Shown piece by piece: positions 26,075-36,165 of a stretch of DNA of 64,000 nt (positions are counted from its first letter, which is position 1; the number at the start of each line of letters is the position of its first letter). The DNA comes from Halomarina salina. GTDB lineage: Archaea > Halobacteriota > Halobacteria > Halobacteriales > Haloarculaceae. Where the stretch lies: assembly GCF_023074835.1 (NCBI RefSeq), contig NZ_JALLGW010000001.1, forward strand, positions 2,728,001-2,792,000, read 5' to 3'. Below the pieces are notes generated by a model. The model ran no database searches. It saw nothing but the letters and a program-made list of their open reading frames with translations, and had not been told where the DNA came from. Made by a program: the position numbers and the translations under genes.

Positions 26075-27001
26075 TCAGTCCTTCTTCTCCGATTCTTGAG
26101 ACCGTTCGCCAAGAGGTTTCATCCGGAGTTCACCGAAGCCGTATCTGGAGTGCGAGCCGATCCGCGTGAGGCCGTTCTTCGCGGTCTCCACTGGGCTGTC
26201 CCCGAGGTAGTTCACGACTTGCCCGTGGTCGACCGTCTGAAGGCGGAAAACCTCGCGCTGTTCGAGAATCTTCTCCTCACGGAACCGCAGGTCGCCGCGG
26301 TTCTCCGCCCACCACCATGGTACGGGGCGGTCGTTCGCCTCCGGGTACTCCGACTCCAAGACGAACGGCGTCACGAGTTCAATGAGGTACGTCTCCGCGC
26401 CTTCGAGCCGGGAGTAGTCCAGTTCGTCAAGGTTCACCACTTGCGTATCTTTCAGTTGGACCTCGCCGTAGCCGTAGTTGCGCTTGCCGCCGAACTGAAT
26501 GCCCTCCAGCACCTCCTTGTCGAGCGGAAGAACCGCCGGGTCATCGGCGTGCAGGTATGCGTGGACGTACCACTTCGTCGTTTGGCGGTTCTTGCGTTGT
26601 TCGGGCCGCCGCCCCATGATTGTCTCGTGAGCCAGCACGGGATGGCCACCGTGGACGCGGAGGTCGTGTGTGTTCAGCGCGTCCCGAGCACGGGTATCAA
26701 GCATCCACGAGTGCGACGCCTGCCGCTGGAGGAAGAGGTCGTCGTAGGCTTCGACCTCAGGGAGACCACTTCCGAGGTACGGACGAATTCCTGACTGGGA
26801 GTGTTCTTCGGGGAACGTCCCGAACTGGCCGGGGACGAACACTCCGTGGCTCGCCGAAATTGCAGCGTGCGTCTCGGGGGCGAGATGCTGGCCAAGGGCG
26901 TGCAGGATGGCGTTCCCGCTCACGTAGTAGGGGTGACCGATGTAATCCATCCTCAACCCCCAGAGGACCTGCTGAACCTCCGTCACCGGTCGGGCCTCCA
27001 T
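26075..27001 (-). CDS. RAMP-superfamily protein, Cas5/Cas6-like, two glycine-rich loops
   Basis: From the ATG at 27001 (MEARPVTEVQQVLWG) the protein has 308 residues. Two glycine-rich loops typical of RAMP RRM folds are seen: GGKRNYGYGEVQL (mid-protein) and IGSHSRYGFGELRM near the C-terminus, suggesting two ferredoxin-like domains as in Cas5/Cas6. A YVHAYLHADDP strand and WYVHAY aromatic cluster lie between. It is last in a four-gene operon and overlaps the preceding gene by 19 bp. Likely an RNA-binding subunit of a RAMP ribonucleoprotein. Catalytic His residues of Cas6 cannot be assigned. The alternative start at 27046 adds a poor N-terminus. Confidence 0.6.
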   Translation of the reverse strand: MEARPVTEVQQVLWGLRMDYIGHPYYVSGNAILHALGQHLAPETHAAISASHGVFVPGQFGTFPEEHSQSGIRPYLGSGLPEVEAYDDLFLQRQASHSWMLDTRARDALNTHDLRVHGGHPVLAHETIMGRRPEQRKNRQTTKWYVHAYLHADDPAVLPLDKEVLEGIQFGGKRNYGYGEVQLKDTQVVNLDELDYSRLEGAETYLIELVTPFVLESEYPEANDRPVPWWWAENRGDLRFREEKILEQREVFRLQTVDHGQVVNYLGDSPVETAKNGLTRIGSHSRYGFGELRMKPLGERSQESEKKD

Positions 27002-27723
27002 GCGGCGTAGTCCTCGATGTACTGGAGTGCGGTACTCCACGACCACATCCGCCGTAGGTTCGCATCGAGTGTCATGTCGTACTTGTTGTGGTCGGCATCA
27101 AGAGGGTGCGCCGTGAGGCGGTTCCACGCCGACGACCACGACTGCCACGGGCGACTTCCGAGTCGGGCCGACGGTCGCCCGTCGTCATCCGCGTCAATGC
27201 GAAGTGCGAACCGTTCCCCGTCGTAGACGGTGCGGAACGGGACGACCTCGCCCGCTGAGTCCACGATGAGTCGGAGGTTAGCGAACTCATGGTGGGCACG
27301 GTAGTTGTCCAGCAGGGCTGCCACTAGAAGTGTGTGGAACTTCAGGCTCGTGTACGGGTGATAGACCGTCTCGTTGAACGCGGCGGCCACGTCGGACGCC
27401 AGCCACCGCTCGTGGGCGGCCAGTGCGTCCTCGGTGGCGATGAGTTCAGACACCTCATTCTCGACGGTCGCTCGTGTGAACGTCTGTGGGTTGTAGAGCG
27501 TCTTCCCAGTGAACAGAGACAGCCGGTAGTGGTCGGCGTGCGTCGGGACGGTCTGCTTCTGCACGTCCAGCGGACGTGAGAGCGCCGCCGCATCGCCGTC
27601 CGCACCCTCAGAAACCGACTGGTTCACCCGAACGCCTGCATACATGTCACTGGCGTCGTCGTGGCTCTCGCCCGTGAACTTGTGGGCGTCGTGGCGGTAC
27701 GCGGTCAGCAGCGGGTCGCTCAT
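26983..27723 (-). CDS. Uncharacterised subunit of RAMP cassette
   Basis: I do not recognise a family for this 246-residue protein. It has an N-terminal polar region, a central SLKFHTLLVAALLDNYRAHHE helix region (written shorter: FHTLLVAALLDNY) and an aromatic C-terminus rich in Trp (RRMWSWSTALQYIEDYAAW). It overlaps the Cas7-like gene by 4 bp (ATGA) and the Cas5/6-like gene by 19 bp, so it is very likely a subunit of the same complex. By position it could be a reduced large (Cas8-like) or small subunit; this is inference only. Confidence 0.6.
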   Translation of the reverse strand: MSDPLLTAYRHDAHKFTGESHDDASDMYAGVRVNQSVSEGADGDAAALSRPLDVQKQTVPTHADHYRLSLFTGKTLYNPQTFTRATVENEVSELIATEDALAAHERWLASDVAAAFNETVYHPYTSLKFHTLLVAALLDNYRAHHEFANLRLIVDSAGEVVPFRTVYDGERFALRIDADDDGRPSARLGSRPWQSWSSAWNRLTAHPLDADHNKYDMTLDANLRRMWSWSTALQYIEDYAAWRPDR

Positions 27724-28580
27724 GACACGTGCTCCACGCGCTCAGTGAGCGCCGACTGCAATTCAGGAAGGCACTCGTCGGCCCACTCATCGTCCTTCGC
27801 GTCCATCCTCTTCGTGTTTCCCTTGCCCCGGTCGAACACCCGCCGAAGTTCTGACTTTTCGTAGAGCGGGTTCATGAGTTCGCAGTCCACAATCCCTCCG
27901 CCGAAGTTCCGAGCGCCACCCAGCTGGTGCATAAAGTCGGTCTGGTGGGCATCGAGGTAATCGATGCCCGCAGCGAGCAGAGCGATGAACTCGGGTTTGG
28001 CTTCTCGGAACGAGAGATGCCACGCACCGTCGAGATTCGCGACAGCGTCTACCTCGGTGTTCCGAAGCGGTTCGCGGTTGTCTTCGCGATTGCGAGAGAC
28101 GATGTTCCGGTTCAGGCGACGGTAGTGGCCTTCTGCCTGTCCACGCGTATAGTCCACGCTGGAGCGAATGGGCGAGAACCTGATGGGCCGCCGCATTACC
28201 TTGCCAGGACGATTGCCGAAACCGCCGAAGAGGTCGTGAATCACGCATCCGTCGCCGCCTTCGTCTTCAAGGCAGTCACCCTTCGGGTGATAGCCGGCGT
28301 CAAGGTCGCGGTTGTAGACACCGTCTTTGCGAAAATTGGCGTTGGCCTCACCGGGATGACAGACGGTGCCATCGCGTTCGTGGACGGCCTTTTCCATCCC
28401 ATGACGGAGCCAGCCCGAGGGACTGAACGCTGGGATGATGCCTCCGATCTGGTTCTGGGGGTCGGTGTCCTCGTAGTTCCCATTGCTGGCGTGATGGCGG
28501 TCAGTCATGATACTGTCGTCAATGATGAGGAGGTCCGACTGAACACGGACAAACACATCACGGAAATCAGATGTCTTCAT
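27720..28580 (-). CDS. Cas7-like RAMP protein (Csf2/Csm3-like)
   Basis: The 286-residue protein has the Cas7 layout: an N-terminal strand (VFVRVQSDLLIID), GGIIPAFSPSGWLRHGMEKA equivalent to the PGSSLRG-LR region, a Cys-containing stretch (GDCLEDEGGDGCVIHDLFGG) followed by RRPIRFSPIRS, and a glycine-rich LGGARNFGGGIVDCEL loop. This closely follows the pattern of Cas7-group RAMPs of types III and IV, which coat guide RNA. A conserved acidic residue for type III target cleavage is not obvious. The gene begins 9 bp after the 156-codon gene and overlaps the next by 4 bp. No CRISPR array lies in the window to supply guides. Confidence 0.75.
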   Translation of the reverse strand: MKTSDFRDVFVRVQSDLLIIDDSIMTDRHHASNGNYEDTDPQNQIGGIIPAFSPSGWLRHGMEKAVHERDGTVCHPGEANANFRKDGVYNRDLDAGYHPKGDCLEDEGGDGCVIHDLFGGFGNRPGKVMRRPIRFSPIRSSVDYTRGQAEGHYRRLNRNIVSRNREDNREPLRNTEVDAVANLDGAWHLSFREAKPEFIALLAAGIDYLDAHQTDFMHQLGGARNFGGGIVDCELMNPLYEKSELRRVFDRGKGNTKRMDAKDDEWADECLPELQSALTERVEHVS

Positions 28581-28589
28581 CTTCGTAGG

Positions 28590-29060
28590 TTAGCAGCCAG
28601 CCATTCGGTTGATTTTCTCCAGGGAGACACCGATTGCTCGGGCGAGTTCGCAGGAGGTGGTTGAAACCGCCCCCTCCCACCACGCTGCGTTATCAATGAC
28701 GTAGAACGGTTTGTCGAACCCGATGTCCTCCGGTATCATCGGCTTGGAGGTGTTACACTTGTCGCTCATGCTTCGTGACAAGCGGCGTTCACCCCAGTTT
28801 CGTAGGTCGGAAGGTAGTAACTTGCACCAACGCCGTGTCCGTGCCCCCGGGAGTGCCTCACGGATGTCGTCCCAGTCCTGCACGTGGGCGAATCCGATGA
28901 GTTCCTTTGCGACCGGGACCTCACGCCCGAGGTGAGAGCGATATTCGGTTTCGACCTCGTAGACGAGTGCGGCTAGGCTGGTGTCGGCGAGTTCAATGTT
29001 CTGCTGCGATTCGACGATCGTGTCGGGGGTTTGAAGTCCGGTGGAATATGATTCGGACAT
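28590..29060 (-). CDS. Uncharacterised first gene of the RAMP operon
   Basis: The 156-residue product matches no family I know. Visible features are an acidic helix (LAALVYEVETEYRSHLG), a basic-aromatic centre (RTRRWCKLLPSDLRNWGERR) and a C-terminal helix pair (CELARAIGVSLEKINRM). It is the promoter-proximal gene of the cassette, 9 bp before the Cas7-like gene and about 90 bases after the inverted repeat. It could be an RNA-binding small subunit or a toxin-like effector; neither is shown. Confidence 0.6.
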   Translation of the reverse strand: MSESYSTGLQTPDTIVESQQNIELADTSLAALVYEVETEYRSHLGREVPVAKELIGFAHVQDWDDIREALPGARTRRWCKLLPSDLRNWGERRLSRSMSDKCNTSKPMIPEDIGFDKPFYVIDNAAWWEGAVSTTSCELARAIGVSLEKINRMAGC

Positions 29061-29151
29061 GGGTCTTCTGTTCCCAGAAACCCGACCCGAGTGCTGGAAT
29101 CACTCGGGCATTTCCTGCGATAGTAACGCCCCAACGGGACCGGGCTTCCTT

Positions 29152-29210
29152 ACCTTCTGCTATACAGCATAACGTTATAAGGTTTCGCCTTATGCTATAG
29201 GGCAGAAGGT
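29152..29210. promoter_or_regulatory. Long inverted repeat between RAMP operon and wHTH gene
   Basis: Two 23-base arms (29152-29174 and 29188-29210) match as inverted repeats at 19 of 23 positions, including perfect outer ACCTTCTGC/GCAGAAGGT and inner GCATAA/TTATGC blocks, around a 13-base centre that itself holds TTATAAGG. The inner sequence also has the palindrome ATAACGTTAT (29170-29179). It lies between divergent genes, overlapping TATA-like sequence for both. The best reading is an operator for the adjacent winged-helix protein controlling both directions. Confidence 0.55.
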
Positions 29211-29240
29211 TGAAAAGGAAAGGACCTGTCTGTGATAGTG

Positions 29241-29471
29241 ATGGGTGAAGATCGGGAAAGAAACGAAGGCGGGCAGTTCGAACCTGAGCACACCGACGAA
29301 GACGTGCTGGAAGCGGTTCGTGAACATGCGCCCGCTGGGACTCAAGAAGTCGCTGGTGAGCTTGGGATTGCACGGCAAAGTGCTGACTACCGACTCCGGC
29401 GTCTTCTCGAAGAGGGCCGAGTCTCGAAGAAGAAGGTCGGGAACTCTCTCGTTTGGTCTGCTGACGAATGA
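29241..29471 (+). CDS. Small winged helix-turn-helix regulator
   Basis: Seventy-six residues from the ATG at 29241 (two GTGs lie just upstream at 29232 and 29238). After a polar N-terminus comes TQEVAGELGIARQSADYRLRR, a helix-turn-helix, and a wing (EEGRVSKKKVGNSLVW). It is divergent from the RAMP operon with an inverted repeat between them, so autoregulation and control of the cassette are likely. Small wHTH proteins of this kind are abundant in haloarchaea and on their mobile elements. Confidence 0.75.
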   Translation: MGEDRERNEGGQFEPEHTDEDVLEAVREHAPAGTQEVAGELGIARQSADYRLRRLLEEGRVSKKKVGNSLVWSADE

Positions 29472-34908: not shown

Positions 34909-36165
34909 GTGGCAGACGACTACGTGCGTCGGACGGCAATCACCCGCCTCTCGGTAGATGGTGAGCAACGCGAGTTGCTTGAGGAAACCATCTCCGAGTG
35001 GAAGCGTGGTTGCCAACTCGCCACGGACATGGCGTGGGGTAAATGCAACACCAAAAGCGACGTCCAGCCCCTCGCCTACGACACCGTGCGCGAACACACC
35101 GACCTCGGCAGTCAACACACGATTCTCGCCACCCACCAAGCTGCACAAGCCATCACCGGCTGTCTCGACCGTCGGTCCAACGGCAAGAAGGTCAGCAGGC
35201 CAACCTTCACCGCATCCACGGTGAAGTACGACACTCGGACGATGACGCTGTTTGACGATGATACGGTGTCGCTCTCCACAACGGAGAGTCGCGTCAGGTG
35301 TGACCTTGCTTTGCCCGACGCCGACGATGGCTACCAACGACAGTACGTCGACTCCGAGATATGGAGCGTCACGGAAAGTACGCTCACCGCTCGTGACGGC
35401 GACTACTTCTTGCATATCGGCTTCCGCCGACACAAAAACGATACTGAGCGGAACACTGCCGAGGACGGAACGGTCCTCGGAGTTGACCTCGGTATCGAAA
35501 ACCTCGCTGTCACCAGTACCGCCCACTTTGTCAGCGGGCGAGAGTTGACTCACGACCTCCGTGAGTTCGAGACGGTCCGTGCCGGACTCCAACAGACCGG
35601 GACACGAAGCGCCCACCGAACGCTCGAACAGTCTAGTGGCCGGGAACTTCGCTACGTCCGTGACGTGTTGCACCGGGCGTCGAACGCGATCGTAGACGAA
35701 GCGCTTCGATACGACTGTGACGTAATCGCGTTCGAGGACCTGACGTATATCCGCGACCGGACGGGTGCGTCGTGGGGGCACAAGTGGGCGTTCCGAACGC
35801 TGTACGAGCAAGTGGCGTACAAAGCCGAAGCGGTCGGGATCCTGGTGAAGCAAGTCGGGTCGGCGTACACATCGAAGCGGTGCGCCGAGTGCGGATTCAC
35901 GGCAGACGAGAATCGCCCAACTCGCAACGACTTTCGGTGTCAGAGCTGCGAGTCGGAAGCGAACGCGGACTACAACGCGGCGAAGAATATCGGGATGCGG
36001 TACGTCCGTCGGGGCCAACAGTCGTCTCAGCGGACGGGCGACAGTCAGCTCGCCCTGAAGTCTGGAACGGTGACGCTGAGCGGCGGATTTACCGCCCACC
36101 CGGACGGGTTCGAAGCCGAGTTCATGGACAAGCCCCATCACCAGAAGTCCTCGACTTCTGGTTAG
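34909..36165 (+). CDS. tnpB: TnpB, RNA-guided endonuclease of an IS200/IS605-group element
   Basis: The 418-residue protein is intact. The RuvC acidic residues are all present: D in VLGVDLGIENLAV, E in VIAFEDLTYIR and D in NADYNAAKN. The zinc ribbon is CAEC...CQSC. TnpB proteins cut DNA guided by a transposon-end RNA, promoting element retention. There is no tnpA beside it, so it is an IS1341-type element that would need a transposase in trans. Its guide RNA (omega RNA) would lie at the 3' end of this gene and in the adjoining right end. The N-terminus is typical of haloarchaeal TnpB. Confidence 0.93.
   Translation: MADDYVRRTAITRLSVDGEQRELLEETISEWKRGCQLATDMAWGKCNTKSDVQPLAYDTVREHTDLGSQHTILATHQAAQAITGCLDRRSNGKKVSRPTFTASTVKYDTRTMTLFDDDTVSLSTTESRVRCDLALPDADDGYQRQYVDSEIWSVTESTLTARDGDYFLHIGFRRHKNDTERNTAEDGTVLGVDLGIENLAVTSTAHFVSGRELTHDLREFETVRAGLQQTGTRSAHRTLEQSSGRELRYVRDVLHRASNAIVDEALRYDCDVIAFEDLTYIRDRTGASWGHKWAFRTLYEQVAYKAEAVGILVKQVGSAYTSKRCAECGFTADENRPTRNDFRCQSCESEANADYNAAKNIGMRYVRRGQQSSQRTGDSQLALKSGTVTLSGGFTAHPDGFEAEFMDKPHHQKSSTSG

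What the first reader, a model, noticed from the sequence alone, without database searches (positions are those of the whole stretch)
29152..29210. 23-bp-arm inverted repeat between the RAMP operon and its wHTH gene
Arms 29152-29174 and 29188-29210 pair at 19 of 23 positions and enclose TATA-like sequence shared by divergent genes. The small wHTH would be its natural ligand. The same structure could instead form an RNA hairpin in the transcript, a possible guide or processing substrate for the Cas6-like protein.
Basis: partly seen in the sequence, partly recalled or inferred. Interest (0 to 1): 0.6.

Follow-up and report, generated by a model that had tools for sequence, protein, structure and literature searches.

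The report
Paired operators beside structured RNA leader

Summary
The inverted repeat is real: 19 of 23 positions pair, and it is the only repeat of its kind in 64 kb. It is better read as two imperfect palindromic operators (29152-29175 and 29187-29210) flanking the BRE/TATA box of the minus-strand operon. Equivalent paired sites sit at the same positions in related loci. Their sequence tracks that of the neighbouring wHTH (partial r = 0.54, 0/1000 permutations), and the predicted transcript starts downstream of them. The operator reading is supported; the IR-as-guide-RNA reading is not.

The larger discovery is the next 92 nt. Between operator and start codon (29058-29149, minus strand) lies a conserved three-way-junction RNA, the operon's 5' leader. 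In two model-fitted alignments 21 of 24 base pairs show compensatory changes. One strand of its closing stem also pairs with the bases just before AUG, giving two mutually exclusive folds. No Rfam family matches. Such leaders precede 91 of 101 examined HRAMP operons and many unrelated accessory genes across Halobacteriales.

The operon is an HRAMP (array-less CRISPR derivative). Most likely, wHTH represses transcription at the paired operators and the leader gates translation. The leader's ligand, and any binding by the HRAMP complex, are unknown.

The parts
29152..29175 (.). Operator site 1: imperfect 24-bp palindrome (relatives: ACCATATGCTAnnTAGCATATGGT), between the operon's TATA box and its predicted transcript start
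29187..29210 (.). Operator site 2: imperfect palindrome upstream of the operon's BRE and next to the wHTH gene's own promoter
29175..29187 (-). BRE (CGAAACC) and TATA box (TTATAA) of the HRAMP operon, about 27-39 nt upstream of the leader's 5' end
   Evidence: base profile of 75 non-redundant loci
29058..29149 (-). Structured 5' leader RNA: stem P1, hairpins P2 and P3 (three-way junction), ending at AUG (29060-29058)
   Evidence: model R2 80.9 bits (the window is one of the 14 seed sequences); covariation; folding -39.1 kcal/mol
29061..29083 (-). Alternative hairpin P4: P1 3' strand (29083-29075, GGGUUUCUG) pairs with the pre-AUG segment (29070-29061, CAGAAGACCC), excluding P1
   Evidence: own pairing -11.7 vs swapped -8.6 kcal/mol, 0/2000 permutations; subtype B; window folds differ by 3.2 kcal/mol
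29232..29471 (+). Small wHTH regulator (HTH_24, PF13412); ATG at 29241 is the likelier start because homologues align from residue 3-4
28590..29060 (-). 156-aa first gene of the operon, no family match; N-terminus fits the leader-linked pattern
27720..28580 (-). Cas7-like (Csm3-related) HRAMP protein
   Evidence: 15 of 33 relatives hit Csm3 models, best E 7e-8
26983..27723 (-). 246-aa HRAMP protein with a Cas10/Csm1-like predicted fold
   Evidence: pLDDT 91.5; VIA Z 12.9 over 230 residues, 3.9 A; Foldseek alone weak, E 0.14
26075..27046 (-). 323-aa Cas5/Cas6-type RAMP protein
   Evidence: Cmr3 models in 28/28 relatives; Foldseek best Cas6 4ilm E 4.5e-5; VIA Z 8-11 to Cas5/Cmr3/Cas6; model only pLDDT 66

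Best explanation
The inverted repeat is a pair of palindromic operators for the divergently encoded wHTH, which represses the HRAMP operon (covering its BRE/TATA and the start region) and its own gene. When repression lifts, RNA polymerase starts near 29149-29151 on the minus strand. The first 92 nt of the mRNA then fold into a three-way-junction leader whose P1 stem competes with a hairpin (P4) that ends at the start codon, so the leader probably gates translation of the first gene. Shown here by computation: conservation of the repeat, its palindromic build, its co-variation with the wHTH, the promoter position, the leader structure and the P1/P4 exclusivity. Inferred: repression (not activation), which fold is 'on', and what tips the balance.
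For: Operators: paired sites conserved at fixed positions around the TATA; single sites upstream of wHTH homologues that lack the leader (L104, L108); partial correlation wHTH-operator 0.54 with 0/1000 permutations, versus 0.09 for wHTH-leader; unique in the genome. Leader: 94.3, 93.1 and 96.1% of cells paired, 0/500 shuffles; wobble asymmetry GU 209 versus AC 53, pointing to RNA on the operon strand; TATA 27-31 nt upstream of its 5' end; P4 specific to each sequence and rebuilt with different letters in subtype B.
Against: No binding, transcript or reporter data. Each operator in the window is only 8/11 palindromic, and in the wider set only 16% and 11% of sites reach 9/11 (shuffles 0.7-0.8%). 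33 of 103 leader loci have no detectable wHTH homologue beside them, so leader and wHTH are separable. In the window the P1 fold is favoured by 3.2 kcal/mol over P4, and standard parameters do not describe molar-salt cytoplasm. The CM alignments are fitted to the model; permutations ignore relatedness.
Confidence: 0.74

Rival explanations
1. The inverted repeat is transcribed and folds into an RNA hairpin that serves as guide or processing substrate for the Cas6-like protein.
For: The arms could pair as RNA; Rfam gives chance-level miRNA hits on it; a Cas6/Cas5-type protein is in the operon.
Against: Conserved BRE/TATA lies inside the repeat and places the start at its edge; palindromic half-sites follow the wHTH sequence; single sites occur upstream of wHTH homologues that lack the leader.
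Confidence: 0.04
2. The leader RNA, not the repeat, is bound or processed by the HRAMP complex, as its guide or scaffold RNA or as an autoregulatory site.
For: Leader upstream of 91/101 examined HRAMP operons; the system is array-less and no guide is known; a RAMP of Cas5/Cas6 type is encoded in the operon.
Against: Leaders also precede unrelated genes, and these occur independently of HRAMP in the genome (20 of 71 versus 17.4 expected, p = 0.45). No variable spacer-like part was noticed; the leader ends at AUG.
Confidence: 0.09
3. The palindromes are bound by another factor (a global regulator or a chromosome protein), not by the adjacent wHTH.
For: Several leader loci carry different palindromes and no wHTH homologue, so other regulators can use this position.
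Against: Co-variation with the adjacent wHTH where present; operator confined to this locus in the genome.
Confidence: 0.1
4. Repeat plus leader are the end of a mobile element or a recombination site that folds as single-stranded DNA.
For: Module precedes very different genes, occurs in serial copies (L197, L205, L208, L213) and on plasmids.
Against: GU:AC asymmetry says RNA on one strand; near-fixed distance to BRE/TATA and to AUG.
Confidence: 0.05

Closest known systems
HRAMP (haloarchaeal RAMP) array-less CRISPR derivative (Makarova et al. 2019; summarised in PMC8730458 and PMC12669027)
   Same: Cas7-like and Cas5-like proteins plus a third conserved protein, no CRISPR array in the window, haloarchaeal host, type III affinity.
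   Different: The passages on HRAMP in the two reviews read here do not mention a leader RNA or operator; the 2019 paper itself is not held. No recognisable nuclease family in this operon.
Autoregulatory divergent operator of small archaeal wHTH/Lrp/MarR-type regulators
   Same: Palindromic sites around the TATA of a divergent gene pair; regulator encoded next door.
   Different: Two sites about 35 bp apart straddling the target's BRE/TATA; different letters with different wHTH paralogues.
Cis-regulatory 5' leaders (riboswitches, ribosomal-protein leaders) in Rfam
   Same: Structured leader from the transcript start to the start codon with mutually exclusive helices.
   Different: No Rfam 15 match; linked to accessory genes with no shared metabolism; no ligand known; found only in Halobacteriales in the sample searched.

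Membership tests
HRAMP | Cas7 homologue | tested here: met
   Csm3 models hit 15 of 33 relatives, best 7e-8; window member itself 0.006
HRAMP | Cas5 homologue | tested here: met
   Cmr3 (Cas5 group) models hit 28 of 28 relatives; RAMP fold
HRAMP | Additional conserved uncharacterised protein in the operon | tested here: met
   246-aa protein found with Cas7/Cas5 in nearly all cassettes; no sequence family
HRAMP | No CRISPR array beside it | tested here: met
   No exact 20-mer repeated at 45-90 bp spacing anywhere in the 64 kb; rest of genome not searched
HRAMP | Associated nuclease (HNH or PD-(D/E)xK) | tested here: inconclusive
   No operon protein gives a nuclease family hit; 246-aa protein keeps an HD-like H11-D12 motif
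HTH_24 winged helix-turn-helix (PF13412) | Score above Pfam's gathering cut-off | tested here: met
   26.9 bits against 21.9
Any Rfam 15 family (for the leader) | Match at or near the gathering score | tested here: not met
   No match on the leader in the window at E up to 10 other than spurious miRNA models centred on the IR, nor in six other loci
Riboswitch | Conserved structure with mutually exclusive folds in a 5' leader | tested here: met
Riboswitch | Direct binding of a small ligand | not testable with these tools
   Needs in-line probing or SHAPE; downstream genes suggest no metabolite
CRISPR guide RNA / crRNA (for the IR) | Repeat-spacer organisation with variable spacer | tested here: not met
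   The IR sequence is a single site in the genome; no array in the window

The most novel reading that the evidence does not exclude
The leader is the missing RNA partner of HRAMP: the Cas7/Cas5-Cas6-like/Cas10-like complex binds or cuts the 5' leader of its own message, using it as guide scaffold or as feedback switch, and the copies in front of other genes are part of the same or a parent regulatory network.
Probability: 0.08. Interest if true: 0.92.

Novelty: new variant of a known kind. Interest (0 to 1): 0.62.

Why it matters
As far as I know, structured regulatory leaders are hardly described in haloarchaea. This one is common (158 of 392 Halobacteriales genomes by one of two models), covaries strongly, contains a switch-like pair of exclusive helices, and precedes almost all examined HRAMP operons. 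It gives a defined place to ask how a CRISPR derivative without guides is controlled, and whether it uses RNA at all. The operator half suggests that transcription and, probably, translation of the cassette are controlled in series.

Tried and rejected
A pattern scan for hairpin-next-to-ATG architecture was too permissive (100 of 107 sense, 88 of 107 antisense); it was used only to find subtype B by eye, and model R3 was used for counting. A base-paired hairpin in the first codons (P5) was seen by eye in several loci, but the ungapped covariation scan showed no clear stem, so it is not claimed. The leader as an HRAMP-only RNA was rejected: both subtypes also precede other genes or occur away from HRAMP. 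The wHTH as ligand of the leader RNA was judged unlikely: their sequences do not co-vary. PDB sequence profiles gave nothing for the operon proteins.

Full report
OBSERVATION. It is the only repeat of this size and quality in the 64-kb window, and three shuffles gave none. The intergenic space runs from the first base after the minus-strand start codon (29061) to the wHTH gene (29232, or more likely ATG 29241).

WHAT IT IS. Upstream regions of wHTH homologues from other Halobacteriales were laid side by side. Each 'arm' turned out to be an imperfect palindrome of its own, for example ACCATCTGCTATGTAGCATATGGT. The two sites flank an AT-rich element. Across 75 non-redundant loci that element is a classical archaeal BRE (GGAAA-like, -39 to -35) and TATA box (-31 to -27), measured from the 5' end of the structured element described below. 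Best palindromes in the two site regions exceed shuffles (16% and 11% of loci reach 9/11 pairs, against 0.7-0.8%), and a control region hardly does (1% against 0.3%). Where wHTH homologues stand without a leader, a single palindrome such as CCATCTACTnnnAGTAGATGG sits just upstream of their TATA-like box (L104, L108). Operator similarity between loci follows wHTH similarity (partial r = 0.54 given the leader, 0/1000 permutations), while leader similarity does not (0.09). In the window's genome the operator sequence is found only here. These results fit a local autoregulatory operator pair.

THE RNA NEXT DOOR. The 92 nt between site 1 and AUG (29149-29058, minus strand) are conserved as a structure: a long P1 stem closing a three-way junction with hairpins P2 and P3. 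In the seed alignment 94.3% of cells pair. In two wider sets found by the model, 93.1% and 96.1% pair, 21 of 24 pairs show changes on both sides, and no shuffle of 500 equals this; sliding the partner by one base drops pairing to 41-47%. GU exceeds AC mismatches 209 to 53, the sign of RNA on the operon strand. These wider alignments are fitted to the model, and seed sequences are included in the first.

A SWITCH-LIKE FEATURE. The 3' strand of P1 is complementary also to the bases just before AUG (window: GGGUUUCUG with CAGAAGACCC). Each leader pairs with its own pre-AUG segment better than with those of others (-11.7 against -8.6 kcal/mol, 0/2000 permutations). The letters change together: GGGUUC/GAACCC, GGUCUGU/ACAGACC, GGUUGU/ACAACC, GCUUCGG/CCGAAGC. 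P1 and P4 cannot coexist. In the window the best fold is -39.1 kcal/mol, and -35.9 with P4 imposed.

DISTRIBUTION. Model R2 (subtype A) hits 158 of 392 Halobacteriales genomes. In an even sample of 295 genomes of the phylum, all 19 hits are from this order. Of 150 listed hits 47 have the HRAMP Cas7-like gene 0.4-1.6 kb downstream on the same strand. Many HRAMP operons without a strict hit carry a diverged leader of the same architecture (model R3). Together 91 of 101 examined HRAMP Cas7 loci have a leader (the weakest accepted matches have E about 0.001-0.002). The other leaders stand before diverse small accessory proteins, among them a SWIM-like CxC...CxH group, without confident Pfam families in the ten tested; they occur independently of HRAMP in the genome. 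70 of 103 leader loci have a recognisable divergent wHTH. No Rfam family matches.

THE OPERON. The Cas7-like, Cas5/Cas6-type and third conserved protein, without an array in the window, fit HRAMP as described in PMC8730458 and PMC12669027. The third protein has a confident predicted fold (pLDDT 91.5) that aligns over 230 of 246 residues with Csm1/Cas10 (VIA Z 12.9, 3.9 A). Foldseek alone is not significant (E 0.14) although most of its top hits are Csm1.

MECHANISM. wHTH occupies the paired sites and blocks TBP/TFB and the start region of the operon, and probably its own promoter. Transcripts that escape carry the leader, whose P1/P4 choice sets access to AUG. The direction of the switch, its signal and the binder are not known. 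The repeat as an RNA hairpin is unlikely because it lies upstream of the predicted start.

LIMITS. All of this is comparative sequence analysis; permutations do not correct for phylogeny; no transcript data were available.

Noticed in passing
window 26983-27723 (-): The 'uncharacterised' third HRAMP protein has a Cas10/Csm1-like predicted fold and keeps a conserved HD(x)HK-type motif near its N-terminus, reminiscent of the HD motif of Cas10; HRAMP may keep a shrunken large subunit.
   Followed up: partly
L197, L205, L208, L213: Three to four leader-headed genes stand in series on one strand, mostly without a detectable wHTH homologue, encoding SWIM-like and other small proteins; they look like a shared regulon or a duplicating cassette.
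   Followed up: partly
G000:C8:1604-1694 (locus L209): Second copy of the leader in the window's own genome, on a small contig, before a 171-aa SWIM-like protein gene.
   Followed up: partly
first 13 codons after the leader, all loci (window 29057-29020, -): N-termini share MxxNxxxxQE-like residues, and bases +33/+34 after AUG are C (91%) and G (99%) although +33 is a third codon position; suggests that the RNA element continues into the coding sequence.
   Followed up: partly
L220 (Halobacterium salinarum plasmid pKBTZ02_29, 5814-6237): A wHTH 86% identical to the window's, with a near-consensus leader (100.8 bits) but no annotated gene behind the leader; transposase genes lie nearby. A handy laboratory species for testing.
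   Followed up: partly
L222 (Natrinema versiforme icosahedral virus 1): A virus gene encodes a 39% identical wHTH domain (annotated transcriptional regulator); no leader was found there.
   Followed up: partly
window 34909-36165 (+): TnpB-like transposon protein ORF (418 aa, CxxC motifs by eye) some 5.5 kb from the cassette.
   Followed up: no
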